A stretch of 43,661 nucleotides of DNA from an uncultured Candidatus Berkelbacteria bacterium (GTDB taxonomy: Bacteria; Patescibacteriota; UBA1384; CAJBMM01). The notes beneath the pieces were generated by a model. It did no database searches and had not been told where the DNA came from. It saw nothing but the letters and a program-made list of their open reading frames with translations. The stretch lies in assembly GCA_903954185.1 (NCBI GenBank), contig CAJBMM010000029.1, positions 1 to 43,661 on the forward strand. The letters run 5' to 3'. Position 1 is the stretch's first letter. Each line of letters opens with the position of its first letter. The translations under genes and the position numbers were made by a program. Of this stretch, positions 2,984 to 29,466 are shown piece after piece.

Positions 2984-3433
2984 GTGCAATATAAAGTGCC
3001 GCAAAATATTGATAAACAAGACGAAATTGTTGGGCCGCTAACCATCATTCAATTTAGCTACCTAGCAGTGGCTTTTGCCATAGACTTTTTACTATTTAAA
3101 TCTATGCCACGTTTTACCAGCATTATGTTAATGATTCCTATCTCGCTTGTGGCTCTTGGGTTAGCATTCGTTAAAGTTAACGATAAGCCATTGTTAGAAT
3201 TTTTATTTGCAATGTTTAAGTTTTTCAGGCAACCCAAAATACGTATTTGGCATAAAACTAGCGACGAACCAGTTTTAACCTTAAGCCATGCCAAAGAAGC
3301 TAAGGTTGATGCACCCATGCGCAAAGAATTTAATCAAAATAGAATTAATGAACTATCGCAAACTTTAGACACTGGCGGAGAAGCTACAGCCAAACCCAAA
3401 ATGCCTTTTACGAACATAAAAAGTGAAAAGTGA
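2984..3433 (+). CDS. PrgI family membrane protein
   Basis: A 149-residue inner-membrane protein of the PrgI type (the family named after a conjugative-plasmid protein, found next to VirB4 in Gram-positive and CPR T4SS loci). It begins MQYKVPQNIDKQDEIVGPLT, the usual family opening, then has two hydrophobic helices at about 23-41 and 46-63, a short basic loop, and a KIRIWHK motif near 89. The tail after about residue 100 is polar. The start is GTG at 2984, supported by TAGGAG seven bases upstream. By analogy with VirB3/TraL-like partners it should anchor VirB4 at the membrane. A composite repeat (3431-3539) follows directly, then the TraC-like and VirB4 genes. Confidence 0.85.
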   Translation: MQYKVPQNIDKQDEIVGPLTIIQFSYLAVAFAIDFLLFKSMPRFTSIMLMIPISLVALGLAFVKVNDKPLLEFLFAMFKFFRQPKIRIWHKTSDEPVLTLSHAKEAKVDAPMRKEFNQNRINELSQTLDTGGEATAKPKMPFTNIKSEK

Positions 3434-3605: not shown

Positions 3606-4544
3606 ATGCCAGATAAACCAATAAAGCCTAACAGTACACAAGCTCACTTACCGTTTGTAGGTGTAGAAGATGGCATTGTCATTATGCCAGACGGTAGTTA
3701 TAGAGCTGTTTTAGCTGTAGGCGCAACCAATTTTTCATTAAAATCGCAACAAGAGCAAGAAGCGATTATTGTTACCTATCAAAACTTTTTAAACTCTTTA
3801 AATTATTCTATTCAGATTGTAATGCAATCTAGAACGCTAGATTTAGAGCCTTACTTAAAAAAGCTCGAAGATGGCATCCCTAACCAAAGAAACGATTTGA
3901 TTAAACAACAAACAGCTGATTATGCCGCCTATATGCGCGAGCTTATTACTGCTGCAAATATTATGGATAAGCGTTTTTATGTTGTTATCCCGTATTCCCC
4001 CATTCAGGTAAGTAAACAGAGCTTTCTTTCCTCATTATTCCCAAAAGGTAATGCGGGACCAATAAAAATCGATCAAAAGCAGTTTGAGGTACACAGAGAC
4101 GAGCTCAAACAGCGCGCCGCAATTATTGGCAGTGGTCTTTCTACCATGGGGTTAAAGGTTACTGCACTAGATACAGATGATGTAATAAGATTATTTTATA
4201 ATTGCTACAACATAGATTTAGCCGCCGAAGAACGAATTGACGACCCTATGATGATGACAAGTAATATTATTGAGTCTGAGGCGGAGAAAGAGAGCTTGCA
4301 GGGGGCAGGGGGCAGGGGGCAGGCAGAAGGGAACAAGGTGCAGGGTGCAGACGAGACGCAAAAGATAGAGGAGATAAAAACTGTTGCAAATGAGCCACAG
4401 GTTGTACCAGCTGCGCCACCAGCTACATCCGCAGCTAAACCGTTGCCACCACTGCCAACCACAACCATCAACCAAACCCCAATTGCCATGGAGCCACAAA
4501 ACACCCCCATTCAACCCGATGCAAACATAAACAATATTCCATAA
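3606..4544 (+). CDS. TraC-like / VirB4 N-terminal-domain-like T4SS protein
   Basis: A 312-residue cytoplasmic protein that resembles the N-terminal, non-ATPase domain of VirB4/TraC-type proteins and lies between PrgI and VirB4, the usual CPR order. Residues 15-45 (LPFVGVEDGIVIMPDGSYRA) and the segment ending in a long helix with YAAYMRELI, then FYVVIPYSP, are typical; no Walker motif is present. From about residue 225 the protein becomes a low-complexity linker with a Gln/Gly/Ala/Glu stretch and then a Pro/Ala/Thr-rich tail. The linker is encoded by a G-rich reiterated DNA word (4300-4331). Start ATG 3606 is preceded by GAGAGGGG. It probably acts as a separate subunit docking on VirB4; that is inference. 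Confidence 0.75.
   Translation: MPDKPIKPNSTQAHLPFVGVEDGIVIMPDGSYRAVLAVGATNFSLKSQQEQEAIIVTYQNFLNSLNYSIQIVMQSRTLDLEPYLKKLEDGIPNQRNDLIKQQTADYAAYMRELITAANIMDKRFYVVIPYSPIQVSKQSFLSSLFPKGNAGPIKIDQKQFEVHRDELKQRAAIIGSGLSTMGLKVTALDTDDVIRLFYNCYNIDLAAEERIDDPMMMTSNIIESEAEKESLQGAGGRGQAEGNKVQGADETQKIEEIKTVANEPQVVPAAPPATSAAKPLPPLPTTTINQTPIAMEPQNTPIQPDANINNIP
4300..4331 (+). repeat. G-rich reiterated word (GGGGGCA)n inside the TraC-like gene
   Basis: Three G5 runs two bases apart, then GG and GGG runs, all in frame in the linker of the TraC-like protein. Related words (GCAGGGTGCAG) follow at about 4339. The coding strand could form a G-quadruplex in principle. Confidence 0.65.
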
Positions 4545-4587
4545 TTTTGACTTTTGATTTTTGAATTTTGAATTAATAAGGAAAATA

Positions 4588-6441
4588 ATGCCTTCACCAT
4601 TTGAAGAATACAGATTAAAACACGAACAAGCCGAAAAAGAGCAAAAGGCTAAAAAGATTTATAGCGAGGGTATGGCTACCGTTTTAGATATTGTTGCCCC
4701 GGCGCTGTTTTTGGTGACACCAAACGATGTACAAATTGGTGAATTTTACGTTAAAACGCTCTTTACATATACTTATCCACGCTATTTACAGACTAACTGG
4801 CTCTCTACCCTTATCGATTACGATTTGACCATGGATATTTCGATGTTTGTGTACCCATTAGAAACCAGCGAAGTAATGACCGATCTCAAAAAAGAGCTGG
4901 GACAGCTCGGTTCATCTATGACTATCAAACAAGAAAAAGGCCAGGTACGTGACCCAGAGCTAGAAACAGCAGTTGGTGATATTGAAGAGTTGCGCGATGT
5001 TTTACAACGCGGCGAATCTAGGCTTTTTCACTACTCTCTTTACTTCACCATTTATGCCAAATCTAAAGAAGAGCTAAAAACCCTTACCAAACAGCTAGAA
5101 TCTGTGCTAGGTGGCATGCTTACTTACACCAAACAATCGCTTTACCAAATGGAACAAGGTTTTAACTCTTGTCTGCCTATGCACAACGATCAACTTGGGG
5201 TTACGCGCAACTTAGACACTGGCTCATTATCAACTACGTTTCCATTTTCTACCGCCACACTCTCCAGTAATGAGGGAATTCTTTATGGCATTAATCGCCA
5301 TAATAATTCTCTAATTCTGTTCGATAGATTTAAACTAGAAAATGCCAATTCAGTAGTATTTGCCAAAGCTGGCGCTGGTAAATCTTATGTCGTTAAACTC
5401 GAGATTTTGCGCAGTTTAATGCTTGGGTCTGATGTGGTAGTTATCGACCCAGAAGATGAATATCGCAAACTGTGCGATGCAGTTGGTGGTAGCTACTTAG
5501 AAGTAAGCTTGAATTCGGAAAAACGCATTAATCCATTCGATTTACCAAGGCCAGACGACCCAAATAGTAAAGAGAGTGGTGAGGATGTATTACGCTCAAC
5601 CATTACAGATTTACACGGATTAATCTCACTCATGGTTGGTGGGCTAACACCAGAAGAAGATTCACTTTTAGACAAGGCACTTTACGATACATATGCCATC
5701 AAAGATATTAGTGTAGACCCTAAAACCCAAACCAATGAGGCTCCAGTAATGTCTGACCTAGTTTCTGTACTATCTAACATGACTGGCACCGAATCGCTAA
5801 CCAAGAGGCTCTCAAAGTACACAGAGGGCACATATGCAGGCCTATTCAACCAACCTACTAACTTTAAATTAGATGAGGGTTTTGTTGTTTTCTCAATTCG
5901 CGATTTAGAAGAACAATTACGCCCTGTGGCCATGTATGTAATATTAAATTACATCTGGACGCAAATTAGGCTTAACTTTAAAAAGCGCATTATGGTTGTA
6001 GATGAAGCGTGGACAATGATGCAATATGAAGACTCGGCTAGGTTCTTATTTGGGTTAGCTAAAAGATCTCGCAAATACTTCCTTGGTTTAACCATTATTA
6101 GCCAAGATGTAGAAGACTTTTTGGGTAGTCAATACGGCAAAGCGGTTGTTTCCAACTCTTCGCTACAAATTTTGTTAAAACAATCTACCGCATCGATAGA
6201 AAAAATATCGCAAACTTTTGGCTTAACTGAAGGCGAAAAAATGATGCTTTTAGAATCTGATGTTGGCGAAGGTTTGTTTTTTGCTGGGCAAGAGCATGTA
6301 GCTATTCGCATCATTGCTAGTTATAACGAAGACGCGCTTATAACCACCAATCCACAGCAAATTGAAGATCAAGATGAAGAGATGGAAAAATCGACTGCAG
6401 AGAATAATGCCAATTCAACAGAACCACCACAAGGAGTGTGA
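4588..6441 (+). CDS. virB4: VirB4 family type IV secretion ATPase
   Basis: A 617-residue VirB4/TraE-type ATPase, the energising and substrate-handling core of type IV secretion/conjugation machines, at the cytoplasmic face of the membrane. The N-terminal domain (about 1-230) contains the expected LFTYTYPRYLQTNWLSTL segment. The ATPase domain has Walker A AKAGAGKSY near residue 260, a DPEDEYRKL motif near 290, Walker B IMVVDEAWTMM near 467, and SRKYFLGLTIISQDVEDFL after it. The frame is open from a TTG at 4561, but ATG 4588 has the proper site (AAGGAAAATA just before), and the upstream stretch is a short-word repeat, so 4588 is chosen. It follows the TraC-like gene and precedes composite repeat 2. 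Confidence 0.93.
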   Translation: MPSPFEEYRLKHEQAEKEQKAKKIYSEGMATVLDIVAPALFLVTPNDVQIGEFYVKTLFTYTYPRYLQTNWLSTLIDYDLTMDISMFVYPLETSEVMTDLKKELGQLGSSMTIKQEKGQVRDPELETAVGDIEELRDVLQRGESRLFHYSLYFTIYAKSKEELKTLTKQLESVLGGMLTYTKQSLYQMEQGFNSCLPMHNDQLGVTRNLDTGSLSTTFPFSTATLSSNEGILYGINRHNNSLILFDRFKLENANSVVFAKAGAGKSYVVKLEILRSLMLGSDVVVIDPEDEYRKLCDAVGGSYLEVSLNSEKRINPFDLPRPDDPNSKESGEDVLRSTITDLHGLISLMVGGLTPEEDSLLDKALYDTYAIKDISVDPKTQTNEAPVMSDLVSVLSNMTGTESLTKRLSKYTEGTYAGLFNQPTNFKLDEGFVVFSIRDLEEQLRPVAMYVILNYIWTQIRLNFKKRIMVVDEAWTMMQYEDSARFLFGLAKRSRKYFLGLTIISQDVEDFLGSQYGKAVVSNSSLQILLKQSTASIEKISQTFGLTEGEKMMLLESDVGEGLFFAGQEHVAIRIIASYNEDALITTNPQQIEDQDEEMEKSTAENNANSTEPPQGV

Positions 6442-6698: not shown

Positions 6699-7919
6699 GT
6701 GGATGAAAAACCCAACAATTTAATGAAAAATGCCTTAAAGTATGGCGGAATCGTGGTTGCTATCTTGGTTCCGGTAATGCTTTTGGTGTTATTTTTAGCA
6801 GTTTTTTATAACCCTAGTGGTTTATGGGGCCGGCCATCTGGCTCTGCGTTAGCCGCAGATGTATCTTGTGAATTAAAATTTCCCATTGGGGCAGCTAGTG
6901 ACGATATAATTGGCGCGGTTTATGACAGATATATCAAAGAGTTTTCGCCTAAATCTCCATTGATTGGAATGGGTAAATATTTCGCACAATCTGGACGTAA
7001 ATCTGGCATAAATCCGAATGTTATTATGGCAAATGCTCGAAAAGAATCGAATTTTGCCGTAGCAGGTGGAGCAAAAGTTGAGCCACCCTGCTATAACCCA
7101 TTTGGCAGAAAAGGCTCTGGGGACTGTGGTGACAGCAAAGAATTCATGAAATTTTCTTCATACGAAGATGCAATACTGCAACACGGCGACTATATTGTCC
7201 GAGTCTATGTAAAAGAGGGCAAAAACAATATTGCAGAAATGATGGAAAAGTATTGCCCAAGGTCTGATAATTGCGCAACAGACCAGTATATAAAAGAGAT
7301 GCGAGAGTGGAATGCAGATTTAATAAATATGGCTGGCGGCGCATTAGGAACAGGGATCTGTTTAGCTAATATTGCCAAACCAATTCCCCCAGATAAAGGC
7401 ATCTGCCCCAATTCACTATGTACACAAAAACCATTACCTATTACTGCAGAAATGAATCAGGAATATGGTTATCCCGTAGTCATAATTTTACATTACTTAG
7501 GAACGGGGTTAACAGCGCAGGGTGCATACGATTACTTTAAAACTACCGTTACCAATAAAAACCCTTCTGATAATAAGTTTGTCCAATTTGTGGTTGGTAA
7601 AGATGGTACGATTTATCAATTAGCAGCCGAATCTAAAATGGTCGCTGGTGCGCTAAATTATAATAAAACACCAGATGGCGGGATAACGATATCAATAGAA
7701 AATGAAGGGCATTTTGAAAGCTCAAATTCGCAAGAACACGAAACAGCGGCCGAGGTGGCTTCTAACGTAAAATTAGTAAAATATTTAATGCAGAAGTATA
7801 ATATAAACAAAGATCAAGTTATATCACATAAAGAAGCCGATCAAAGAGCCGGAAACGCAGAGGGCAGACGTTCAGATCCTGGTGAAAGATTTATGCAGAA
7901 AGTATTAAACCAATTATGA
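6699..7919 (+). CDS. Membrane-anchored bifunctional peptidoglycan hydrolase (glucosaminidase-like + amidase_2)
   Basis: A 406-residue envelope enzyme. One transmembrane helix (about 16-37, GGIVVAILVPVMLLVLFLAV) anchors it; the rest is extracytoplasmic. Residues about 85-200 resemble a lysozyme/glucosaminidase-type domain (GINPNVIMANARKESNF, with Glu as likely catalytic residue, and YNPFG). Residues about 245-405 are an N-acetylmuramoyl-L-alanine amidase (amidase_2) domain with the zinc-site pattern: IILHYLG (His), QVISHKEAD (His), and SDPGERF near the end. It would cleave glycan and stem peptide to let the secretion apparatus cross the wall. The start is uncertain: GTG 6699 has a weak site; ATG 6723 is an in-frame alternative. 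It overlaps the next gene by four bases (ATGA), so the two are coupled. Confidence 0.85.
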   Translation: MDEKPNNLMKNALKYGGIVVAILVPVMLLVLFLAVFYNPSGLWGRPSGSALAADVSCELKFPIGAASDDIIGAVYDRYIKEFSPKSPLIGMGKYFAQSGRKSGINPNVIMANARKESNFAVAGGAKVEPPCYNPFGRKGSGDCGDSKEFMKFSSYEDAILQHGDYIVRVYVKEGKNNIAEMMEKYCPRSDNCATDQYIKEMREWNADLINMAGGALGTGICLANIAKPIPPDKGICPNSLCTQKPLPITAEMNQEYGYPVVIILHYLGTGLTAQGAYDYFKTTVTNKNPSDNKFVQFVVGKDGTIYQLAAESKMVAGALNYNKTPDGGITISIENEGHFESSNSQEHETAAEVASNVKLVKYLMQKYNINKDQVISHKEADQRAGNAEGRRSDPGERFMQKVLNQL

Positions 7920-9166
7920 AATCATATAAAGTTTTGTTAATTGGAATTTTGATTAGCGCAACAATTTTTACAGCTGCCTTTGCGCTTTATGCCTTTATAT
8001 TAAAATCGCCAACAGTTATTGTGCAATCTAGCCCAGAAAGCGCAACTGTACTTATAAATAAAATTGAACAACCCAGCCATCGTTTAACTTTAAAGCCAGG
8101 AAGTTATGACTTAACTGTCTCTTTTACAGGCTACGTTACTTATCAAGGCTCAATTACACTAAAACGCGGGCAAAAATTAGTCTTGCCCATCTTGCTAAAG
8201 CAAGTACCAACAGCCACACTTTTAACCACAAATTTAAATACAGTACCACAATTTTTTGATGCCACACACGATGTCTATTTTATGGGCACAAATAACACCA
8301 CACTTTATCGCACGCGCAATTTAGTAGGAGAAGCAGGCGTTAAAGTAGAAGCAATGACCTCTAACACGCTATTGGGAGCCGAAAAGGTGGCGGTAAGGCC
8401 TGATGGCGAAGTTGCGCTAATAAAAATGTCCGACGGCATATATTTATACGACTTTAAACGATACGATTTCTTAAATCAATCTAAAACCTTGTGGGGCACC
8501 AATATTGATGATTTTGCTTGGTCGCCAAATAATTTACAAGTTGCCTATACCTATTACGGCGCAAACGGAGAGCAATCATTAATGCTTTCTGATATTCAAA
8601 ATAATAATCAAAGAAGAGAAATAGATTTAACCAAAGATAAAATTGACCACCCTTCTATAGCATGGTCTGATGATTCTAGGCATCTACTACTAGTTGCCAA
8701 AAGCACACAAACCAAAACAAATTATATTTATACTTACGATTTGTTTATTAAAAAGTTTGCCCAGCTAACTGAAGTAGGCGAGGTTGAAGGAGCAAAGTGG
8801 AGCCCAGACGGGGAATATATCGCCTACGTTGCCCCGGGACGAGATAGCGCAGGCTCAACAACCAATATAGCTTGGATTGCTAAATCTGACGGTAGTGGAG
8901 TAACTCCGCTCAACGTGGCGGTATCTAGCATTAGCAAATTATGTTGGGAGAATAATAGTACGGGCGTGATAGTAGCTTCTAACAATACCGACGGTAGTAT
9001 TAAATTGCAAAGTGTCGATTTGTCTGCAAACATTACGCCATACCAATACGCTCCACCGACCAAGTTTAATCCAGATAATATAATGTCTATCCCTAAAGAT
9101 AGCCGCTTACTTTTTACTAATGATGGCCAATTAATGTCATTGGGGCTAATTACCAGCAAATACTAG
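7916..9166 (+). CDS. PEGA-domain, beta-propeller exported protein
   Basis: A 416-residue protein with an N-terminal hydrophobic helix (about 5-27) that anchors or exports it. Residues about 35-100 form a PEGA domain, the surface-layer-associated fold, with the repeated pattern VQSSPESATVLINK...LKPGSYDLTVSFTGYVTYQG. The rest looks like a TolB/WD40-type propeller: repeated blades such as IDDFAWSPNNLQVAYTYY, HPSIAWSDDSRHLLLV and VEGAKWSPDGEYIAYVAP. The start overlaps the amidase stop, so co-translation is likely. Propellers of this type usually bind proteins or glycans, so a structural or wall-binding role at the secretion apparatus is inferred. No catalytic motif is evident. Confidence 0.8.
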   Translation: MKSYKVLLIGILISATIFTAAFALYAFILKSPTVIVQSSPESATVLINKIEQPSHRLTLKPGSYDLTVSFTGYVTYQGSITLKRGQKLVLPILLKQVPTATLLTTNLNTVPQFFDATHDVYFMGTNNTTLYRTRNLVGEAGVKVEAMTSNTLLGAEKVAVRPDGEVALIKMSDGIYLYDFKRYDFLNQSKTLWGTNIDDFAWSPNNLQVAYTYYGANGEQSLMLSDIQNNNQRREIDLTKDKIDHPSIAWSDDSRHLLLVAKSTQTKTNYIYTYDLFIKKFAQLTEVGEVEGAKWSPDGEYIAYVAPGRDSAGSTTNIAWIAKSDGSGVTPLNVAVSSISKLCWENNSTGVIVASNNTDGSIKLQSVDLSANITPYQYAPPTKFNPDNIMSIPKDSRLLFTNDGQLMSLGLITSKY

Positions 9167-9292: not shown

Positions 9293-10624
9293 ATGCCCGA
9301 AATCCAACCGCCACAATCAGACCCACGCTTCCCTCAAGAAATTCCTGAGGTAGATTTTGATGGTGCAAAGACTGACATAGATTCTGTAAACGACGAGACA
9401 CAACACTTACCCGATATGGTCGACGCAATTCAACAATCTCAAGTTAAGCCTTCCGGAATTCAAAAGTCACCATCATTACCATCCGACCAGCCCGCTGTAC
9501 CCACACCACCCACTCGGACGAATAGATTCTTCGATTCATTTAATAAGTTTATCCAACCGAATAACACGGCAAGGCTAAATGCTTCTAGAGCCAAAGATAC
9601 TTCAATAATTAATAAATCTACTAAAAACGCAGGTAATGCCGCTAAAACAGTTGAAAATAAAGTCAAAACAGCTGTTAAAAATGAGGCTAGACAGCTGGTT
9701 GGAAATGCGGTTAAAACAGGCGCTAAAACAGCCGCATCTTGGGTTAGCAAAACAGTCCTCGCCGCTACCTCTGAAGTATGGCTACCAATTCTTATTATCG
9801 TTTTGATAATTGTCGGAGGAGGTATTGCTATAGCAGCAGCGGTTGCTATTGGTCAAAATGCTGGCTCTAGTACCCACCAAACAAGCGCGGCAGAAACGCA
9901 AAGCTTAACCCTAGCCAATGCTGGAAATTTAATCGCTAGACGCTCGTTAGATAACAACGACAAGACAGAACTCAGCGCTTTATTGACCACTGTTAAACAG
10001 TTAGCCACAAATAACCCTCCTAAAGGCCGCCCCAAACCGGACACTGAAGCAATTGCTTTAATCGACGATATAGCTTCTAAATTGGCAACCTATTCAAGTG
10101 CAGACACTAACGTTGATAAAAAATCGATCGACAGTATTTCTAATAATGTCTTAAAACTCGCCTCATTAGGTTACGACGAAGCAGTGGCTAGCGCAATTGG
10201 TCTTAAAATTGCCACAAAAGCCCGTTATTTTATTACTGATCCTGCAGGGATTCAGGAATTTAACACTTGCGACCAGTCAGACAAAACTGCCTGCAACGCA
10301 TTTGTGATAAAAGTTATGCGAAAAACTGGTATTGATATGGGGTACTCGGGCTCGGCTATAGATCAGTATAAGTACACCAAAAGCCGCCCAGAGTGCTATG
10401 AAACGTTTACCGCCACGGCCCCTACGCAATTTGCACAAGGCGATATCGTCTTTCGCACCAGATTAATGAGTGGCCACGGTCATGTAGGTATTTATGTTGG
10501 AGGCGGTAATTTTGCCGTCGCCTCATTGGGATCATACACACCACAAATTAAATCTTTAAAATCTATGGACAGAGATATGAATCAGGTAGCAAGATTAAAG
10601 GTTGACGTATGCCCCGCAAAATAA
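9293..10624 (+). CDS. Membrane-anchored NlpC/P60-like (CHAP-like) cysteine peptidase
   Basis: A 443-residue protein: Pro-rich cytoplasmic N-terminus (1-80), an Ala/Lys-rich helical region (about 85-155), one transmembrane helix near 163-185 (LPILIIVLIIVGGGIAIAAAV), a helical linker, and a C-terminal peptidase-like domain from about 320. That domain has the expected nucleophile (TACNAFVIKVMRKTG, Cys), the mid-domain AQGDIVF strand and the histidine motif GHGHVGIYVGGG, as in NlpC/P60 or CHAP wall hydrolases. It is therefore a second predicted wall-cutting enzyme of the cluster, with a fold different from the amidase. The gene overlaps the start of the giant gene by 16 bases. The start ATG 9293 has only a weak site (GAAAG). 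Confidence 0.8.
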   Translation: MPEIQPPQSDPRFPQEIPEVDFDGAKTDIDSVNDETQHLPDMVDAIQQSQVKPSGIQKSPSLPSDQPAVPTPPTRTNRFFDSFNKFIQPNNTARLNASRAKDTSIINKSTKNAGNAAKTVENKVKTAVKNEARQLVGNAVKTGAKTAASWVSKTVLAATSEVWLPILIIVLIIVGGGIAIAAAVAIGQNAGSSTHQTSAAETQSLTLANAGNLIARRSLDNNDKTELSALLTTVKQLATNNPPKGRPKPDTEAIALIDDIASKLATYSSADTNVDKKSIDSISNNVLKLASLGYDEAVASAIGLKIATKARYFITDPAGIQEFNTCDQSDKTACNAFVIKVMRKTGIDMGYSGSAIDQYKYTKSRPECYETFTATAPTQFAQGDIVFRTRLMSGHGHVGIYVGGGNFAVASLGSYTPQIKSLKSMDRDMNQVARLKVDVCPAK

Positions 10625-13600
10625 TTATTGTATTGCTAATTTCGATTTTACTATCACCATACTTAAACGTGGGCAATGTTAAAGCCGTCGACGCTCCGCC
10701 AGCTGACGATTCGGCAACGAGCACTGTTACCGCTGACGACGGTAATGGAGAAGAAGACCCGAATGCAACCATGTGGGTAGGATCATTAAGCTCCGATAAG
10801 GAAATTCCGACAATTTCTTCTATAACCGAGCTTATATTAAATATGCAATCACGCCGAATTGGAGGCGAGCGCAAAGAACAAACTCTACCTAGAATTGGCA
10901 TGTCTCAATGCGATCAAAGCCTAGTTACAGCTGGTAAAATTGATGAAAGAGTGCTTGAATCTCTAAATTATTTAGTCAGACCAGTGCAACAAGGCGGCGC
11001 GGGCATGACATATTTGCACGTCACATTTAGCAAAGAGTGCGAAGAAGAAGTGCCCGAATTGCTAAACGGGGCATACCCAGTCATTTTTGATGGAGAAACA
11101 GAAGATCCTAACAACCCCGGATATGCATTACAAAATAGCCAGGAAAACGCACCTGTTACCCCAGGGTCAACTAACACTCCTTCATCGTCTCTATTGAATA
11201 GCGATACAATCAAATCGGTGGTTAATGCATATAGCACGCAAAAGTATAAAGGATTCTCCGAGCTCTCAAAAATTATATCCCCATTGGCAAGTGCTGCTAC
11301 ATTAAAGAATACCGATGTTGAGCCAGATGGAGTAGATAATGTCCATAAGCAAGGCCAGGCCGTAGATATAATGGCCGCAGGATTGTTGATGTGTGTCACC
11401 AAATCAGGTGGATTAAAAAACATCCCAGTAGGTATAGGTAGCGGTGCTGGCTCTAAAAGCACCAGACAAGATCCTCGCCCAATTAAAGTATCGTGGCAAA
11501 CAGATAAGGGCGTTTCTAATGTTAACACGCCATACGGACAGACCTTCGATCAAATGGCAAGTACCATGGGGCTTGATCAATTCTTAGAAGGGTTTGCTGC
11601 ACAAGACGGAACATTTAGAGCTCAAGCTTTGCAAGCAGCTTTTGCACAAATGGGCTTTTCTCTAATTGCCAATCAACTAGGTATAAAAGCAGGTACTTTT
11701 GACCCTGCTACAGCATCATTAAATTATCAAACCATGGGCTATGCAATGTTAGCTGACTTGATGGATTTACCAGACATGTCAGTATTTGATCCTTTTGCAA
11801 ATGATGGAATTTCACAACCAAACCCGCTTCAAACCAGAAGAGACAATGTCGATACTTTATTAAAAACAACACTTTTACGCACAGTTGAGAAAGATCTTAG
11901 CTTGCCCGCCGGCAGCCTAGATGGCGATACGGTAGAAGACGTGATGACCAACGCTGGTAAACGTCGCTTAGAAAAAGACCTTGGGCTAGCGGCTCGGAGT
12001 TTAAACGGATCATTAGAAGACCCGTCGGCTATCTTGCAATCTATTGGGCAAGCTAAAATGGAATCTTCGTTCCATCTACCCATTGGCGCCACCAATGCCT
12101 CTAAAGTTAACAATTCTGGAATTATTAGCGGGATAATAGAAAATACAACTAATTTACTAAAACTTACGTCGGATCAAAAATCGTATGCCGAAAATGTTGT
12201 CCGCGCTTCTTTCAGCTTGCCAAGCAGTGTATCTTTGGCAGATTTAACAAATTCTAATAGCGGTTTCTGGAAAGATGGAAGCAAAAGTCAAACTGTGACA
12301 GACAGACTAAAAGCATACGACAAACAACTATACCCTAAAGATAACACCCCAGATCTTACGTCACCTGGCGCCATAGCTGTTATTGACGATATTCGCAAAG
12401 GTAGTTTTGATGACCTAACTTTTAGAGTCATTACTAATCGCATGTCTTTGACAGATTACCAAAAAGTGATTGGACTTGGCGCATTACTCAATCAATACGG
12501 TATCTACAGCTCCACCTCTGGCTCTTCAAATCGAAATGTCACCACCAATGGTAGAGCTGTCGATTTTCCGCCAGACGAAGCGGGGTATGGCCTAACAGGC
12601 GGTAAACTAGTAGATATAGATCAAAAATCTACCATCTCACAACTTCGCAAAAAATATAACGATCCCCTTGCTGAAATTATAACTATTACAACCAGTCAAA
12701 CTTATGATGGAAGAGCCAATACAACAATCAAGAAAGGCTATATAAACGCCAAAAAGGTGTCTATCCGCAGCACAGAATCTACCGACAGTTTGCGCTCGTT
12801 TTATAACGATCCTAATGCCATAATCGTCACACAAAAAAACAATTTTATTACAAATTTAATAGCAGGAGATAAAAACTACTGGGTTGCACTTGGGGTTAAC
12901 GTCCTTGCTTCCTCTCTGCAAATGAACCCTGACGAACGTTTAAAAATTACACAAAATACCGACAACGTCCTTGGGCAATCTGGCTTTAATGTACCGCTAG
13001 AAACCAGAACTGGCATGGTAGCAGATGCTATTGCAGGCAAACGATCATTTGGCTTCTCTGCAGCCAGTGCTAACTTTAGCATGAGCCTAAGCCCCAGCGA
13101 CTTTCTCAATTTGATCGGCTCTGGGCTAGCCAAAGACAGATCTGACGCTAAGGCAAAGAGCCTAGCCGACCAAAGAGCTGACGCAGTCATAAATATTGCA
13201 AAGCAACGTTTTGGATACAGCTTCGACAGCATGGCTGGCAAAGCGGTGGGCGATAGAGAGCTAGTTAACGTTCTATACGCATATGATCAAAAACGAGAGG
13301 CATCACACGATGCGATAGAAGTATTTACCGTAACCGACCATTCGCAGACGGCCTTCCAATTATCTAATAGAGTCATCGCACTTAAATCTTTTGAAATGAC
13401 AGATAGAGAAGGAGCTCCGTTAGTTGCCCCACAAACAAAAGTCAGCAATGATGGCTACACTGTTTTGGTCCCAGCCGATTCGTTTAAGAACACTCTTGGC
13501 AACATTACGGTTAAAATTACGTACTCTACTTACGCAAAAAAAGCAGGTCAAGCATCGCAAATATCGCCCGATCTTTTCCAATCACTCTTTAATAACCCAA

Positions 13601-16600
13601 GTGCATTATCTGGAATTGCCTTGCAATTAGGCGCAGCTAAAATGAGCTTGGCATTTAACTTACCAACTAACGCTTTGGGGCTTGCAGCACAATTATTAGA
13701 TCCAAAGGCCTCTGGCACTACTGGTCTTGGACAGTCTGCTTTAGAACAAACTGGCGGATTGATCCTTGGATCACTTTCGGGTGGAACAATCGGAGATTTA
13801 ATCAGCTCAGGAAAAATTACCCGAGATCAATTAAATAGGATGTTCTTGTTAGAAGCGGGATGGTACGAAAAAATTGAACAAAATGACACTAACTTTATCG
13901 AAACATATCGAACCGCACTATATGTTACTGACCAATATTATAAAATTGAATTAGGATCAACACTAGAATTATTACTAGGTAGAATTACCTTAGATCAGTA
14001 TAAAAAACTTGTTGGGCAAGCGTCATTGCGTTATAACATGGGCGGTGTATTGGCTGGCACGTTCGATTTACATATCGCTGGATATCGTCTTAATGCTCAA
14101 GACTTTTACGATATTCTTAACGGTGAATGGTATATGACCGGTGAACGCATTGGTGCAAGGCTTCAAGAAAAAAACCATAATTTACCTATTGGTTCGTTAG
14201 CTTTATCTCTAATAAATGGGAAAACGGGTGCAAGCCTCCAAATGCTGGCTACCAATGCCATCGCAACTGCTTTCCATCTTAACTCTCTTAATATTACCGA
14301 TATGACCTCTATAACCCAGATTAAATATGCAATTGGGCAATCTACCATAGAACAGGCTCTCGGTTTTGGTAATCAAACATTTATTGATGGAAATGCACTA
14401 GATGTGGCAGAGCGTGTTGGCGCAGAAAATTTTGCAAATGCTTTTGGTATTACCTTGCCTCAATATGTGTTTGACCAGCTAAACCAAGTGAAATATTCGT
14501 ATCATCAAAGCATGGCGATAAATGATCGCAACAAAATAATTCTCGCCTATTTAAATACAATTCTCGCTAATGGTTTGGGCGTAGCAACCGAACAAGTTTA
14601 CGACGCTAATACAAAAGCTAGGTTTGAAGCGATAGATTATTCACTTGGCATCGAAAAAGGCTCCACGCTTAAATTTATGACCTTGCAAATTAACAGCAGC
14701 GACTATATTAAACTCACTGGCCAAAAAGCTGTTGACGATGGCATAAATTCACAATTAGCCAGTTTGCTTGGCGTACCCGATAGCTATGTTTTTGAAGGCA
14801 AAAAGATTGTTGATGCAATAAAGAGCAATGATTTTACCAAATTAAAAACCGTCGCCGAAGAATGGGGTGGTAAATATTTTGATGCCCAAATTGGTTGGAC
14901 AGACGGAACATTCAAAAACGTACTCGAAAATGTAAATAATACCGCTGTTATTAAGGCAATTATTACTAACGAGGGCTCTAAAATACTAGCCAAAATGACC
15001 AATTTGCCAGAAGACGCCTACAAAGGTTTATTCAGTGGAAATTTAGTGGCATTCGAAGCCAACATGATTGCTTCGCAAGTTAATATTGCGGGTTATACTG
15101 CCGATGATGCCGCGCAACTATTTAACGGCCACTTTACCGCAGGTATGAACTTAATTGGCACCGCTTTAATGTCTAATACCGAAGATATGAAAAAAGCGGG
15201 TATTACTTATAACGAGCTAAGAAATTCTTTATATATCGACCCTACTTCGCTAAGGAGTTCGATTATAGATACATATCTTAAAAGTAATCCTGGAATAAGC
15301 AGGGAAATGATCGAAAACGACCAAGAGTTTGCCTGGATATTTGACGCTGACAAACAAAACTTTAGTGGCAAATCTTGGGCAGAATCAACTAAACAATCTG
15401 TGCAAAAAGAAGCCCGTCAAACTGTTACTTATAAATATCTAGATTTTCAAGCTAAATCACTATTACCCTCAGAATATGCAAAATACATTCAACCAGGATT
15501 TGCCAGAGCGATGGTTGGTGGCAGTTATTCTTATATAGATATTATAACCGGTAAAACCATTTCTTTGTCTGGCGACGAAGCAAGATGGCGATATGCTAAA
15601 GACTTTTTTACCAGCTATGCAGTAGATAACATTCCAATTCTTAAAGAACTTGGCGTATCAGCTAATACTTTAACCATTCTTTCCGATTATGCTCTTGCAC
15701 ACAAAGGTGATGAAAAATGGCTAGAAAGCGCCCTTATGGCCAACAATGGGCAAGGCTTTGCCGATTTGGGACGTAATTTAGATAAACTTACTAAGAGCGT
15801 TTTTGGCTTAGATTTTGCCCCCGGAACTGGCGCCGCTTTAATAACATATTCATTTGATGGCAATGTCTCTGCCCTTGGCAATAATTTATGGAGCTCTTGG
15901 CAAGGCAAAGTATTTAATTGGGCAGATAGCGCGCTAGGCTTTAAATCTGGTACAACCAGCGTCATTTATCAGGGCATTACAGCCTATCAATCGGCCTTAT
16001 CAGCCTATCAAGAAGCAAGTTTTGCCGCTACCAACCTAGTTATGGAAGCTGCTGCTACGGGCGATTTAGCCACATTTGATTCTGCCATGAATCAAGCAGG
16101 TAGCGATATGTCATCGGCGTCTAGGCAATTCAAAACCCAAACAGCGATGATTATTGCCTCTGTTGCCAACATAGTATTCCAAAAGCAAATTGGCCAAATA
16201 GAAACAGCACTTGGCCTTGCCCCCGGAACGCTTATTTACTTGGTACAATATTTAATTAGCCCAGACCCTATTACTCTTGGATTATTTATCTTCTTTAACT
16301 TCTTCTGGGGTGGATCTTCTACCAGATGCGCCATAGATAGGTACCCAGATGGCGATCCATTTAACATGACGAATATAATTCAAAGCCAAGCATCTTTGAT
16401 GCAAAACCTTATCAATTCCGCAGGTTCATCTATTAGCTTAGATGCCGCCGATACCGCCAATGCCACAAATGCAATTGATAAAAAGCTTTTGCCACCGAAA
16501 CCGTTTAAGGGTGATACAAATGACGATTATCGTGCAGGCATCAAAGCAGGTGCCCAATATGAAGTACGTCGCACTATCGGCTCACTCTTAATTATGGGCA

Positions 16601-16806
16601 TTAAAAATACTGCAAGCAGTGGCAAACCATGCCAACCTGGCTCACTCATACCTTGCCAAATTGGAACGCTGAGTGAAGAAGATATAAATATGTTTGAACC
16701 AATTTCTGCCCGCACCGATTTATACGGACCGTTAAGTGCCAGACCAGAAAAGATAGGCCCCGGATGGTTTGAAAAGACCGTGGATAGAGTGCATCTTGGG
16801 TTTTAA
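10609..16806 (+). CDS. Giant exported repeat protein (2065 residues), function unknown
   Basis: Starts at ATG 10609 inside the end of the NlpC-like gene, after AAAGG. Residues 1-26 (MPRKIIIVLLISILLSPYLN, then AVDA) form a signal peptide; the mature protein is extracytoplasmic. I recognise no full domain. Degenerate helical repeats run through it around an LGL-x-x-G-T/S-L core: IANQLGIKAGTF, VEKDLSLPAGSL, LEKDLGLAARSL, MESSFHLPIGAT, MSLAFNLPTNAL, IEQALGFGNQTF, KSVFGLDFAPGT, IETALGLAPGTL. An HKQGQAVDI motif near 246 and NGRAVDF near 650 resemble the zinc/substrate motif of M15 peptidases. A hydrophobic stretch near 1890-1903 (LGLFIFFNFFWGG) may be a membrane segment. Position after two wall hydrolases suggests the secreted or surface component of the T4SS, perhaps for cell-cell contact; that is inference. 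Confidence 0.85.
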   Translation: MPRKIIIVLLISILLSPYLNVGNVKAVDAPPADDSATSTVTADDGNGEEDPNATMWVGSLSSDKEIPTISSITELILNMQSRRIGGERKEQTLPRIGMSQCDQSLVTAGKIDERVLESLNYLVRPVQQGGAGMTYLHVTFSKECEEEVPELLNGAYPVIFDGETEDPNNPGYALQNSQENAPVTPGSTNTPSSSLLNSDTIKSVVNAYSTQKYKGFSELSKIISPLASAATLKNTDVEPDGVDNVHKQGQAVDIMAAGLLMCVTKSGGLKNIPVGIGSGAGSKSTRQDPRPIKVSWQTDKGVSNVNTPYGQTFDQMASTMGLDQFLEGFAAQDGTFRAQALQAAFAQMGFSLIANQLGIKAGTFDPATASLNYQTMGYAMLADLMDLPDMSVFDPFANDGISQPNPLQTRRDNVDTLLKTTLLRTVEKDLSLPAGSLDGDTVEDVMTNAGKRRLEKDLGLAARSLNGSLEDPSAILQSIGQAKMESSFHLPIGATNASKVNNSGIISGIIENTTNLLKLTSDQKSYAENVVRASFSLPSSVSLADLTNSNSGFWKDGSKSQTVTDRLKAYDKQLYPKDNTPDLTSPGAIAVIDDIRKGSFDDLTFRVITNRMSLTDYQKVIGLGALLNQYGIYSSTSGSSNRNVTTNGRAVDFPPDEAGYGLTGGKLVDIDQKSTISQLRKKYNDPLAEIITITTSQTYDGRANTTIKKGYINAKKVSIRSTESTDSLRSFYNDPNAIIVTQKNNFITNLIAGDKNYWVALGVNVLASSLQMNPDERLKITQNTDNVLGQSGFNVPLETRTGMVADAIAGKRSFGFSAASANFSMSLSPSDFLNLIGSGLAKDRSDAKAKSLADQRADAVINIAKQRFGYSFDSMAGKAVGDRELVNVLYAYDQKREASHDAIEVFTVTDHSQTAFQLSNRVIALKSFEMTDREGAPLVAPQTKVSNDGYTVLVPADSFKNTLGNITVKITYSTYAKKAGQASQISPDLFQSLFNNPSALSGIALQLGAAKMSLAFNLPTNALGLAAQLLDPKASGTTGLGQSALEQTGGLILGSLSGGTIGDLISSGKITRDQLNRMFLLEAGWYEKIEQNDTNFIETYRTALYVTDQYYKIELGSTLELLLGRITLDQYKKLVGQASLRYNMGGVLAGTFDLHIAGYRLNAQDFYDILNGEWYMTGERIGARLQEKNHNLPIGSLALSLINGKTGASLQMLATNAIATAFHLNSLNITDMTSITQIKYAIGQSTIEQALGFGNQTFIDGNALDVAERVGAENFANAFGITLPQYVFDQLNQVKYSYHQSMAINDRNKIILAYLNTILANGLGVATEQVYDANTKARFEAIDYSLGIEKGSTLKFMTLQINSSDYIKLTGQKAVDDGINSQLASLLGVPDSYVFEGKKIVDAIKSNDFTKLKTVAEEWGGKYFDAQIGWTDGTFKNVLENVNNTAVIKAIITNEGSKILAKMTNLPEDAYKGLFSGNLVAFEANMIASQVNIAGYTADDAAQLFNGHFTAGMNLIGTALMSNTEDMKKAGITYNELRNSLYIDPTSLRSSIIDTYLKSNPGISREMIENDQEFAWIFDADKQNFSGKSWAESTKQSVQKEARQTVTYKYLDFQAKSLLPSEYAKYIQPGFARAMVGGSYSYIDIITGKTISLSGDEARWRYAKDFFTSYAVDNIPILKELGVSANTLTILSDYALAHKGDEKWLESALMANNGQGFADLGRNLDKLTKSVFGLDFAPGTGAALITYSFDGNVSALGNNLWSSWQGKVFNWADSALGFKSGTTSVIYQGITAYQSALSAYQEASFAATNLVMEAAATGDLATFDSAMNQAGSDMSSASRQFKTQTAMIIASVANIVFQKQIGQIETALGLAPGTLIYLVQYLISPDPITLGLFIFFNFFWGGSSTRCAIDRYPDGDPFNMTNIIQSQASLMQNLINSAGSSISLDAADTANATNAIDKKLLPPKPFKGDTNDDYRAGIKAGAQYEVRRTIGSLLIMGIKNTASSGKPCQPGSLIPCQIGTLSEEDINMFEPISARTDLYGPLSARPEKIGPGWFEKTVDRVHLGF

Positions 16807-23528: not shown

Positions 23529-24278
23529 TTAAAGGATTTCGTCGTCTAAATCGTCATCATCAGCTGGTTTTACCTCGGGTGTGGCGGCAGAAGTGGCTGG
23601 GGTGTCTTCTGCATCGTCTACGCTTAGGTTGCTGAACGGTGAAGAAGGTTTTGGTGCCATAGGAGATGATGGTGGAGTTGGTGCACTAGCCATAGGTGGC
23701 CTTGGTGGCAATGGAGGCAAGCTGTCTGACTTGGGTGTTTCCATTGGTTTTGGTGGCAGTGGAGGTAATGGGGGAAGCGGAGGAAGTGAGTTTGATGACA
23801 TTGGTTTGTTATTATCTTTGGCGGCATCATCAGCTTCTTTTTCGGTAATTAGCGGCCCATTGTCAGCTGGTTTGTAATTAAATGATGGGAGTGGTGGCAA
23901 TGGAGGCAAGCTGTCTGATTTAGGTGTTTCCATTGGTTTTGGTGGCAGTGGAGGAAGATCGTTTGTTTTAAATGAAGGCGGTGTTGGATTGTTTGAAATA
24001 AATGGCTTTGGTGGTAGTGGAGGTAATGGGGGAAGTGGTGGTAAATCCATCGGTTTGGATGGAAGAGGTGACAAAATCGTTGTTTCAGCTTTCTTTTCCA
24101 TTGGGCCGCTTTCTTTTCCCATCATATCTTTATAGTGTTCGATCGAAACTAAAACAGCCGCTGGTTTATCGCCGTGAGTTAAGACAAATAGATCGTCTTT
24201 TCCCATTCCACCAACAATACTGTCTAATTTTTCTTTTGCTTGACCAACTGAAACAATGTTCTCTAATTGAACGTGCAT
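23529..24278 (-). CDS. Phd/YefM antitoxin-like domain fused to a proline-rich tail
   Basis: A 249-residue protein. Residues 1-55 match the Phd/YefM antitoxin fold: VSVGQAKEKLDSIVGG, then LFVLTHGDKPAAVLVSIEHY, the DNA-binding and dimerising part of type II antitoxins. The remaining 195 or so residues are low complexity, built of PPLPP units, and contain a direct repeat (LPPKPMETPKSDSLPPLPP occurs twice; DNA copies at 23704-23765 and 23893-23954), ending in an acidic DDDDLDDEIL. No toxin gene is adjacent: a tRNA lies on one side and pilB on the other. The start has a strong AAGGAGGG and a good promoter. It may be a regulator or scaffold made from an antitoxin domain; function is unknown. Confidence 0.85.
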   Translation of the reverse strand: MHVQLENIVSVGQAKEKLDSIVGGMGKDDLFVLTHGDKPAAVLVSIEHYKDMMGKESGPMEKKAETTILSPLPSKPMDLPPLPPLPPLPPKPFISNNPTPPSFKTNDLPPLPPKPMETPKSDSLPPLPPLPSFNYKPADNGPLITEKEADDAAKDNNKPMSSNSLPPLPPLPPLPPKPMETPKSDSLPPLPPRPPMASAPTPPSSPMAPKPSSPFSNLSVDDAEDTPATSAATPEVKPADDDDLDDEIL

Positions 24279-24554: not shown

Positions 24555-26159
24555 ATGTCTGACAAAATTTCTGATAAAATTTTGCAACTAGATAGAAGCC
24601 AAGAAGAAAATGCGACTAAAGGTAAGGCAGCCACGCTTAATATTCAATATTTAGATTTAACTAAAACCGAATTGGATGAAAAAGTTCTTAGGGTGGTACC
24701 AAAACAAGTAGTAGAGGGATCGCAATGTATTGCCATCGTGTTAAATGGATCTAAATTGTTGCTGGGTGTGGTTAATCCCGAGAGCGAAGGGGTTAAAAAA
24801 AGTATTATGGAGCTTGCGCAAACTACAGGCTTTGAAATAAACTTAGCGTTAATATCGCCCAGTAGTTATGCCTATGCTAAGAAAACTTATGATTTGTTGG
24901 TACACCAGAATGTTGGCGAACAGCCAGTTGTTATATCACAACAAAACATTGAGGTGCTTAACTCCATCGCCTTACAAATGGAAACAAACAAACCTTTGGG
25001 CGGTGTAAGCGTGACCGATCAACTCTCAGCTATTTTAGCAAAAGCGGTGGAATTAAAAGCATCAGATATACACCTAGAACCAGCCGAAAAAGATTTAGAA
25101 ATTCGCTTTAGAATTGATGGAGTTTTGCACAAAAAGTTTGAGAGGCCAATCAGTGAGTTTCATGGTTTATCATCTCGCATCAAGTACTTAGCTAAGATGC
25201 CCCTAGTTACTGCCGAAGAGCCACAAGACGGTCGTTTCACCATTAATGTGGTAAATGATACCTTAGATCTTCGCGTAGCCAGTTTGCCGACAGTATACGG
25301 CGATATGATAACTATTCGTATTTTGAATAAAGATAAAGTGATGTTCAATTTAAGTCAGCTTGGGTTGCGTCAAGATTTAGAAGCAATTATGCATGACGCA
25401 ATTAAAAAACCGCACGGTTTGGTTTTGGTTACTGGTCCAACTGGTTCTGGTAAAACCACTACTTTATATGGATTTTTACGTGAGCTAAACTCTGAGGAGC
25501 GAAAAATCATTACAATCGAAGATCCAGTCGAATACAAATTAGAAGGGTTAGAACAAAGCCAGGTAGATAGTGAAAGAGGTTATACCTTTGTAGAAGCGTT
25601 ACGTGGTGCATTACGACAAGATCCAGACGTTATTATGATTGGTGAAATTCGCGATAAAGAAACCGCTGGCATTGGTATTCGGGCAGCTTTAACTGGCCAT
25701 ATTGTGTTGGCAACGATGCATAGCAATAGTGCTCCTTCGGCGTATAACCGTTTGCTAGAGATGGATGTTGAGCCTTTTCTATTCTCGGGAAGCGTAAATA
25801 TAATAATCGCGCAAAGGTTAATTAGGTTGCTCTGTCAAACTTGTAAAAAAGAAAGACATTTAACCAATGAAGAAAGTAAAACATTTGAACATAACTTAGG
25901 CCGAGTTCCAGATAAGATATTTGAACCCAATGGATGCGACGATTGCGATGGCATTGGTTATAGTGGGCGTACGGCTATATTTGAAGCATTAGTGCCCAGT
26001 AGAGCCATGGAGCAACTTGCATTAAATAAGGCATCGATTAATGAATTTGAAGATCAGGCAAATAAAGATGGTATGATTTCGCTGTTTCAAGATGGTTTGC
26101 TTAAGGTAGAGCAAGGCGTTTCATCACTTGCCGAGATTTATAGGGTGACTAGGGAATAA
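24555..26159 (+). CDS. PilB/GspE family type IV pilus assembly ATPase
   Basis: A 534-residue hexameric ATPase of the PilB/GspE type, which drives assembly of type IV pili or type II secretion pseudopili. The N-terminal MshEN-like domain (about 20-150) is followed by the catalytic domain: Walker A GPTGSGKTTT near 294, Asp box IITIEDPVEYKLEG near 318, Walker B RQDPDVIMIGEIRD near 355, and His box TGHIVLATMHSN near 380. Two CxxC pairs (near 427 and 460) form the zinc site. The length is normal. Start ATG 24555 follows ATAAGGAG. No other type IV pilus gene (PilC, PilM-Q) is in the window, so its partners lie elsewhere. Confidence 0.93.
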   Translation: MSDKISDKILQLDRSQEENATKGKAATLNIQYLDLTKTELDEKVLRVVPKQVVEGSQCIAIVLNGSKLLLGVVNPESEGVKKSIMELAQTTGFEINLALISPSSYAYAKKTYDLLVHQNVGEQPVVISQQNIEVLNSIALQMETNKPLGGVSVTDQLSAILAKAVELKASDIHLEPAEKDLEIRFRIDGVLHKKFERPISEFHGLSSRIKYLAKMPLVTAEEPQDGRFTINVVNDTLDLRVASLPTVYGDMITIRILNKDKVMFNLSQLGLRQDLEAIMHDAIKKPHGLVLVTGPTGSGKTTTLYGFLRELNSEERKIITIEDPVEYKLEGLEQSQVDSERGYTFVEALRGALRQDPDVIMIGEIRDKETAGIGIRAALTGHIVLATMHSNSAPSAYNRLLEMDVEPFLFSGSVNIIIAQRLIRLLCQTCKKERHLTNEESKTFEHNLGRVPDKIFEPNGCDDCDGIGYSGRTAIFEALVPSRAMEQLALNKASINEFEDQANKDGMISLFQDGLLKVEQGVSSLAEIYRVTRE

Positions 26160-26463: not shown

Positions 26464-26814
26464 TTACATAAACAATCTGGCGGCGGTTTTTTCAATAACG
26501 AATGCCAAGACAATGATAATTATACCAATAATGGCATTTATTATGCCTTTTCTAGCTGTGCCTGCTTTAGCATCATCGCCACCAGCAGTAATGTAAGAAA
26601 TACCACTCCAGAGTAGGTAAATAACGGCCAAAGCTCCTGCTACAAATAAAATCAAGGAGATTATTTGGTCAAAAATTTGTGACAGGTTTGCATTTCCTGT
26701 TATGGGGCAAAGCCCTGTAAAGAATCTAGAAGTTCCTGTTCCGGTGGTGCCATAACTGGCACTACAATCGGCAGAAAAGAACTGTGCATGTGCTTTTGGA
26801 ATTAATTCGAGCAT
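26464..26814 (-). CDS. T4SS-type pilin (paralog 1)
   Basis: A 116-residue small membrane protein of the T4SS pilin type common in CPR bacteria. The N-terminal MLELIPKAHAQFF resembles a short signal with an AHAQ cleavage-like site. Two hydrophobic helices follow (about 50-69 and 89-107), separated by the signature YITAGGDDAKAGTARKGIIN. VirB2-like pilins have the same two-helix hairpin layout. It is the most downstream of three small tandem pilins on this strand. No other function is suggested. Confidence 0.8.
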   Translation of the reverse strand: MLELIPKAHAQFFSADCSASYGTTGTGTSRFFTGLCPITGNANLSQIFDQIISLILFVAGALAVIYLLWSGISYITAGGDDAKAGTARKGIINAIIGIIIIVLAFVIEKTAARLFM

Positions 26815-26879
26815 TTTATACCCCTTATATTTTTATTTTTATGATTGTTTGTCTAATAATTGATAAACTAAGCAGTGCT

Positions 26880-27269
26880 TTATGCGCCAAAAATTCGGGC
26901 TACAGCAGCTTGAATTACAAACGCTAGAAGAACCAATACTATGCCAATTACCGCATTAATAATAGTTTGGCGCGCTTTAGTGGCTTTAGTATCGTCACCG
27001 GCAGATGTAATATAAGATATGCCACCCCATAACAAGAATACCAAGGCCAAAATTCCCACTAGCCATAGTATTAAGGCAATGACCCTATCAATAATATTTC
27101 CAAGAGTAAGCTGACCTGTTCCAGTAGAGTTAAGAATTGGGATTAACTTTGTAAAATACCCAGCTTTACTCTCTAGCTCTTTATCTATAGAGCTAGACGC
27201 TGATGGTACTTGGGCGTGGGCAATGCCTACATACCAAACTATAAAATTACTCCACAAATTACTTAACAT
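26880..27269 (-). CDS. T4SS-type pilin (paralog 2)
   Basis: A 129-residue paralog of the neighbouring pilins. A hydrophobic N-terminal signal ends in AHAQVPSA; the two helices (about 58-78 and 100-120) flank YITSAGDDTKATKARQTIIN. The loop before the first helix carries KLIPILNSTGTGQLTLGNI. Gaps of 65 and 133 bases separate it from the flanking pilin genes, with no repeat in between. An AGGAGGAAAA site precedes the start. Confidence 0.8.
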   Translation of the reverse strand: MLSNLWSNFIVWYVGIAHAQVPSASSSIDKELESKAGYFTKLIPILNSTGTGQLTLGNIIDRVIALILWLVGILALVFLLWGGISYITSAGDDTKATKARQTIINAVIGIVLVLLAFVIQAAVARIFGA

Positions 27270-27402
27270 ATGCTTTTCCTCCTACAATTTAGTTTAATGA
27301 TAATAACTGTGGTTTGTCAAATAATGTCTTATGTAAGCCACGCTAAAGCGTGTTCTACGCAAATGGATGAAAGCATTACTCTAAAGTGCGCGTCGTTACA
27401 TA

Positions 27403-27711: not shown

Positions 27712-27739
27712 ATTAATATCCTTTCAGAATTATCCATAC

Positions 27740-27942: not shown

Positions 27943-27961
27943 TTTTCGCTTTTAACTATCA

Positions 27962-29465: not shown

Positions 29466-29466
29466 G

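What the first reader, a model, noticed from the sequence alone, without database searches (positions are those of the whole stretch)
10609..16806. 2065-residue exported protein built from a degenerate LGL-xx-G-T/S-L helical repeat, in a T4SS locus
Seen: signal peptide, no recognisable full domain, and at least eight spaced variants of one motif (LGIKAGTF, LSLPAGSL, LGLAARSL, FHLPIGAT, FNLPTNAL, LGFGNQTF, LDFAPGT, LGLAPGTL). It directly overlaps an NlpC-like wall hydrolase and follows VirB4. Inference: it is the secreted, surface or tip component of a CPR secretion machine, perhaps the part that contacts a host or partner cell. This is the largest unexplained gene in the window.
Basis: partly seen in the sequence, partly recalled or inferred. 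Interest (0 to 1): 0.72.

Follow-up and report, generated by a model that had tools for sequence, protein, structure and literature searches.

The report
Giant repeat inside a split wall-peptidase domain
In tiny, probably host-dependent Berkelbacteria, a 2,065-residue exported protein in the type IV secretion gene cluster looks like a cell-wall peptidase domain cut in two by a huge helical repeat, so it is probably a wall-spanning part of the secretion machine rather than a loose toxin or adhesin.

Summary
The 2065-aa ORF (10609-16806, +) has a signal peptide, no full known domain, and a degenerate repeat of about 28 residues (consensus GxxxIExxLGLPxGSL) far above chance. It sits in a type IV secretion (T4SS) cluster (PrgI, TrsD-like, VirB4, amidase, PEGA, NlpC), convergent with recF-dnaN-dnaA. 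The class is Candidatus Berkelbacteria. The family's N-terminal signature was found in 46 of 55 class genomes; VirB4/PrgI genes lie upstream in 26 of 27 testable class loci. New here: the repeat is an insert. The two ends of the protein are halves of one domain resembling M15 peptidases (MepK/DUF882): HxxGxAVD near the N-terminus and DxxHxGF as the last residues. Inserts range from about 150 to 2400 aa, and one paralogue carries the domain uncut. M15 kinship of the N half is supported by profiles; that of the C half is inferred. Structure prediction was too weak to test it. Most likely this is a wall-anchored, VirB1-like structural part of the Patescibacteria T4SS, with a helical arm looped out of a peptidoglycan-binding domain. 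Enzymatic activity is unproven. The T4SS near dnaA is already known; I found no description of this protein family.

The parts
10609..10686 (+). signal peptide (residues 1-26, MPRKIIIVLLISILLSPYLNVGNVKA)
   Evidence: sequence; hydropathy peak residues 1-19
10891..11523 (+). N-half of the split M15-like domain (residues 95-305), with invariant D112 and Q297, nearly invariant R114 and G130/G132
   Evidence: alignment A1 of 27 relatives; profile match to MepK family
11344..11367 (+). HKQGQAVD (residues 246-253), equivalent of the M15 H-x6-D zinc-ligand motif
11524..16485 (+). about 1650-residue helical insert (residues 306-1959) between the two halves
   Evidence: helix-rich low-confidence models
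11878..12087 (+). best-preserved tandem repeat units (residues 424-493), one helix per about 28-30 residues
   Evidence: repeat HMM from relatives only; helices at pLDDT 70-83
16486..16803 (+). C-half of the split domain (residues 1960-2065), ending at the C-terminus with D-x-x-H2062-L-G-F; Q2017, G2050 and H2062 invariant
   Evidence: alignment A2 of 24 relatives
2984..3433 (+). PrgI (VirB3-like)
   Evidence: PF12666 E 1.9e-11
3606..4544 (+). TrsD-like protein, homologous to the N-terminal part of VirB4
4561..6441 (+). VirB4 ATPase, CD1110 (MPF_FATA) family
   Evidence: NF045971 359 bits, cut-off 325
6699..7919 (+). membrane-anchored glucosaminidase plus amidase_2
   Evidence: PF01832, PF01510; TM 18-36
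7916..9166 (+). PEGA plus beta-propeller-like protein, N-terminal TM
   Evidence: PF08308
9293..10624 (+). membrane-anchored NlpC/P60 protein; its TM anchor module is shared with TM-anchored split-M15 proteins
   Evidence: PF00877

Best explanation
The protein is a class-wide structural component of the Berkelbacteria type IV secretion system that works in the cell wall. It is exported by Sec (inferred from the signal peptide). Its N-terminal block (residues 95-305) and its last about 105 residues fold together (shown indirectly) into one domain related to M15 peptidoglycan peptidases of the MepK/DUF882 kind, with His246, Asp253 and His2062 as the likely zinc ligands (inferred). The domain binds, and in some members may cleave, peptide stems of peptidoglycan (inferred). 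The about 1650-residue alpha-helical repeat leaves and re-enters this domain through a loop, so it forms a long arm or closed loop pinned to the wall at both ends. I propose that this arm scaffolds the T4SS channel or its VirB2-like pilus through the wall, with the neighbouring amidase/glucosaminidase and NlpC protein opening the mesh: a VirB1-like role with a structural arm added.
For: Both halves are the most conserved parts: D112, D253, Q297 and Q2017, G2050, H2062 are invariant in the alignments. Of 35 relatives with both halves, 32 end within one residue of the C-half, while the gap between halves runs from none to 2384 aa. A 584-aa paralogue in genome G030 (L102) carries both halves contiguously in about 165 aa, and its two parts match the two ends of that genome's giant protein at 41% and 50% identity. 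The N-half profile aligns with E. coli MepK and five relatives at score 36.5 against a maximum of 19 in 60 column shuffles, with SxHxxGQAxDI in register. Individual N halves hit Pfam families of the M15 clan and little else: M15_4 in 3 members, M15_2 in 2 (best 3e-4), Extensin-like_C in 2, out of 10 weak hits. T4SS linkage. Presence: N-half in 46 of 55 class genomes. TM-anchored relatives and the NlpC neighbour share an anchor module. A VirB2-like pilin array lies in the same window.
Against: The C-half alone does not match MepK significantly (8 of 200 shuffles as good; a global alignment did not help), so its M15 assignment rests on the uncut paralogue and on motif position. The AlphaFold models were poor (pLDDT 48 and 60.5) and fold searches found nothing. 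The acidic residue three before the last His is present in 18 of 34 proteins only, and relatives in two other families of the phylum lost H and D of the N motif, so activity is doubtful for many members. In family f37 the giant protein is not next to VirB4. No experiment links the protein to the T4SS.
Confidence: 0.6

Rival explanations
1. It is a surface or tip protein that contacts the host or partner cell; the repeat arm reaches outwards and the M15-like domain anchors it or attacks the partner's wall.
For: Export signal, very large size and fast-varying insert length; T4SS linkage; monoderm T4SSs use adhesins for contact and no PrgB-like adhesin is known in Patescibacteria (PMC12102498).
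Against: No adhesin domain or beta-rich stalk; the insert begins and ends in the same wall domain; TM-anchored forms exist with small inserts.
Confidence: 0.22
2. It is a substrate (effector) delivered by the T4SS into a neighbouring cell.
For: The gene lies in the T4SS cluster; effector delivery has been speculated for the Saccharibacteria system (PMC11665869).
Against: It has its own Sec-type signal; relatives are membrane-anchored; it is found in 46 of 55 class genomes at a conserved place, unlike variable effectors; no toxin domain found.
Confidence: 0.06
3. The ends do not form an M15-like domain; HxxGxAVD and the terminal H-x-G-F are a different, family-specific fold with no link to peptidoglycan.
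For: No whole-protein Pfam hit; C-half not significant against MepK; H/D lost in some relatives; no PDB profile hit.
Against: Hits of separate N halves to three Pfam families of one peptidase clan and the MepK profile match would have to be coincidence.
Confidence: 0.15

Closest known systems
MepK / DUF882 (Peptidase_M15_2, MEROPS M15) murein endopeptidases
   Same: D-x-x-L/V helix, central strand, SxHxxGxAxD motif, and a terminal Gly-rich strand with His
   Different: MepK is a compact 182-aa protein; here the domain is cut by a 1650-aa repeat, has an extra PIKVxWQ strand, ends HxGF instead of HxD, and about half the relatives lack an acid at His minus 3
VirB1-like wall hydrolases of monoderm T4SS (PrgK, TrsG/CD419 type)
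   Same: exported or bitopic wall-active protein in the VirB4 cluster
   Different: no transglycosylase or CHAP domain in the giant protein (wall-cleaving domains sit in its neighbours); giant helical insert
Patescibacteria T4SS near dnaA (PMC12102498; essential in Southlakia epibionticum, PMC10633639)
   Same: PrgI, TrsD, VirB4, wall hydrolases downstream of virB4, VirB2-like pilin array, origin-proximal position
   Different: the giant split-domain protein is not described in the main texts I could read; Berkelbacteria are not named in PMC12102498
Extended VirB6 and CagY-type giant T4SS proteins (lead from reviews and general knowledge)
   Same: very large T4SS subunits that grow by insertion of repeats or extra domains
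   Different: no polytopic VirB6 core and no VirB10 domain found; no sequence similarity found

Membership tests
M15 peptidases (MepK/DUF882-like) | H-x6-D zinc-ligand motif in SxHxxGxAxD context | tested here: met
   NVHKQGQAVD at residues 244-253; exact spacing with H in 26 of 34 relatives, D in 33 by a simple motif extractor
M15 peptidases (MepK/DUF882-like) | profile similarity above chance, N-half | tested here: met
   hhalign 36.5 against shuffled maximum 19; Pfam M15_2 E 3e-4 on one relative, below the curated cut-off
M15 peptidases (MepK/DUF882-like) | profile similarity above chance, C-half | tested here: inconclusive
   best place is the MepK His strand, but 8 of 200 shuffles score as high
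M15 peptidases (MepK/DUF882-like) | third zinc ligand His in the last strand | tested here: inconclusive
   H2062 is invariant in A2 and a His lies in the last 16 residues of 33 of 34, but its equivalence to the M15 His is inferred from motif position only
M15 peptidases (MepK/DUF882-like) | M15 fold | tested here: inconclusive
   models of separate pieces only, pLDDT 48 and 60.5; no fold match
M15 peptidases (MepK/DUF882-like) | zinc-dependent peptidoglycan cleavage | not testable with these tools
   needs biochemistry
T4SS component of the MPF_FATA-like Patescibacteria system | conserved linkage to VirB4/PrgI | tested here: met
   26 of 27 class loci with at least 5 genes upstream; not so in family f37 outside the class
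T4SS component of the MPF_FATA-like Patescibacteria system | required for T4SS function | not testable with these tools
   needs mutants
VirB1 family | transglycosylase (SLT) or CHAP domain | tested here: not met
   no Pfam hit in the giant protein
PrgB-type adhesins | known adhesin domains or wall-sorting signal | tested here: not met
   no Pfam or NCBIfam hit; no LPxTG at the C-terminus

The most novel reading that the evidence does not exclude
The repeat insert, pinned at both ends to one peptidoglycan-binding domain, closes into a ring or collar that threads the T4SS pilus through the wall: a new structural principle in which a peptidase domain became a clasp for a giant solenoid loop, evolving by change of insert length between about 150 and 2400 residues.
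Probability: 0.12. Interest if true: 0.82.

Novelty: new variant of a known kind. Interest (0 to 1): 0.55.

Why it matters
The T4SS is essential for the only Patescibacterium in which it was tested (PMC10633639), its role is stated to be unknown (PMC11665869), and many of its parts are unannotated. A conserved giant protein whose two ends build a wall-peptidase-like domain gives a concrete candidate for how this machine crosses the wall. It also explains why domain searches miss the protein: neither half alone reaches a family cut-off in the window protein. The split-domain logic (a short N signature and the last 20 residues) offers a way to find such proteins in other dark-matter genomes.

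Tried and rejected
A single-sequence scan of genome contigs with the window protein found nothing; an alignment was needed. PDB searches by sequence or profile with the whole protein, both halves, the uncut paralogue and the broader N profile gave only chance hits. PF08291 in 192 phylum genomes found one unrelated short hit. PF05951 across ten genomes found only G014's giant protein, below the cut-off. AlphaFold of window residues 85-640 and 1640-2065 gave low confidence and no fold matches. A weak ADP-ribosyltransferase hit to one C-half (E 0.0099) was dismissed: one member of 24. The motif NVTTNGRAVDF at about residue 648 lies in a poorly conserved stretch and is taken as chance.

Full report
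What is there. The ORF at 10609-16806 (+) encodes 2065 residues and starts inside the last 16 bases of an NlpC/P60 gene. Upstream on the same strand are PrgI, a TrsD-like protein, VirB4 of the CD1110/MPF_FATA family (359 bits, cut-off 325), a membrane-anchored glucosaminidase/amidase and a PEGA/beta-propeller protein. Downstream and convergent lie recF, dnaN and dnaA. The window is a contig of a 1.0 Mb genome, 97% complete. Named relatives are mostly Candidatus Berkelbacteria.

The repeat. A repeat HMM trained only on relatives finds 8 units in the window protein; 500 shuffles give 17 units in total and never more than one each. Over 49 proteins there are 327 units, against 5 in five shuffles of every protein (this model was trained partly on these proteins). 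The consensus is DDILENIGRAKIEQELGLPPGSLQGNS. Spacings of 28 and 53-58 residues indicate a period of about 28. The profile self-alignment is significant. In the best-predicted stretch each unit is one helix plus an LPxGSL loop (pLDDT 70-83). Over most of the insert the repeat is strongly degenerate.

The ends. An alignment of 30 proteins, 1300-2965 aa, showed strong conservation at the two ends. The N-terminal block reads D.R.L..LVTP..GGAG..IKV ... SAHxxGQAVDIS ... PIKVxWQ; the C-terminal block ends in HIGF or similar at or near the last residue. D112, D253 and Q297, and Q2017, G2050 and H2062, are invariant in the two alignments. Of 35 proteins with both blocks, 32 end within one residue of the C block, while the gap between blocks ranges from none to 2384 aa.

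One domain, cut in two. In genome G030 a separate 584-aa protein (PHP domain plus tail; L102) carries both blocks contiguously in about 165 residues. That tail matches the two ends of the same genome's giant protein at 41% and 50% identity. So the blocks are best read as halves of one domain and the repeat as an insertion. The high identity to the giant protein of the same genome suggests that L102 may have lost the insert rather than preserve the ancestral state. Smaller inserts (about 150-450 aa) occur in L099, L101, L103 and L109.

Which domain. N halves of relatives hit Pfam Peptidase_M15_2, Peptidase_M15_4 and Extensin-like_C, which are families of one peptidase clan (clan membership from general knowledge), and little else. 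Profile comparison with E. coli MepK and five relatives places SAHxxGQAVDIS on SYHTKGQAMDFH with score 36.5, against at most 19 in 60 column shuffles. The C half's best place is MepK GGVGYYPRSNFVHID, but with no significance of its own. The window protein keeps H246, D253, D2059 and H2062. Aspartate or glutamate at the 2059 position is kept in 18 of 34 relatives. In short relatives of two other families of the phylum the N motif reads SAFxTGQAxxI or SAYGTGQALGI, so the metal site is lost there. I therefore claim M15-like ancestry with moderate confidence and leave catalysis open.

Linkage and spread. In 26 of 27 class loci with at least five genes visible upstream, VirB4/TrsD/PrgI lie upstream on the same strand within seven genes; the exception starts at a contig end but has amidase and PEGA homologues (counted without the L102 paralogue). 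The N half was found in 46 of 55 class genomes. Eight of the nine others have VirB4, and two of these show marginal N-half hits with the broader profile, so divergence is as likely as absence. Outside the class, family f37 has 2231-2709-aa members without VirB4 nearby, and families f49/f59 have about 620-820-aa members, beside the T4SS genes in the three loci read.

Topology. Most long members start with a signal peptide. Others have a soluble N-terminal region and one strong transmembrane helix before the N half. That anchor region is homologous to the anchor of the window's NlpC protein (E 1.7e-9 with L107). So wall-active proteins of this cluster share and swap anchors, as expected of parts that work at one place in the envelope.

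Mechanism. Shown: export-type N-terminus, T4SS linkage, split domain, helical repeat insert. Inferred: M15-like zinc site, peptidoglycan binding, scaffold function. Because the insert begins and ends in one domain, it must be a loop, whatever its shape. With a glucosaminidase/amidase and an NlpC protein encoded next door and a VirB2-like pilin array 10 kb away, the simplest role is to hold or guide the T4SS channel or pilus in the wall.

Known background. PMC12102498 describes the Patescibacteria T4SS as MPF_FATA-like, often near dnaA, and notes peptidase and lysozyme genes downstream of virB4 that are essential in Southlakia epibionticum. PMC10633639 shows that the cluster is essential there. 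PMC11665869 states that its role is unknown. None of the main texts I searched mentions this protein; supplementary tables could not be read.

Limits. Structure prediction of separate window pieces was poor and fold searches were empty. Genomes are mostly MAGs; several members are truncated by contig ends. Signal peptides and TM segments were judged by hydropathy alone.

Noticed in passing
window 26464-28312 (-) and 28317-29486 (-): An array of four VirB2-like T4SS pilins, followed by a 389-aa protein with a leader and a C-terminal T4SS_pilin domain and then an extracellular solute-binding protein (29467-30855).
   Followed up: partly
L036, L039, L044, L050, L052, L067 (VirB4 ORFs of 868-906 aa): In family f15 the TrsD-like protein and VirB4 are one ORF (TrsD-like part about 1-225, VirB4 from about 285), so the window's separate 312-aa gene corresponds to the VirB4 N-terminal domain.
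   Followed up: yes
G030:C12 (L102:7655-9406:-): A PHP-domain protein carries an uncut copy of the split M15-like domain, away from the T4SS locus.
   Followed up: partly
G000:C39 and C42: A second VirB4 (599 aa) with pilins, and a VirD4-like gene on C39, occur elsewhere in the window's genome; C39 and C42 look like near-duplicate contigs or a repeated element.
   Followed up: no
L131, L133 (plasmids of Methylobacterium and Phaeobacter): DUF882 M15 genes lie directly next to VirB11-type ATPase genes on plasmids, one typed MPF_I, a hint that M15 hydrolases are recruited to T4SS elsewhere.
   Followed up: no
window 23529-24278 (-): A 249-aa protein with a Phd/YefM antitoxin-like N-terminus next to a PilB/T2SSE ATPase gene (24555-26159).
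   Followed up: no
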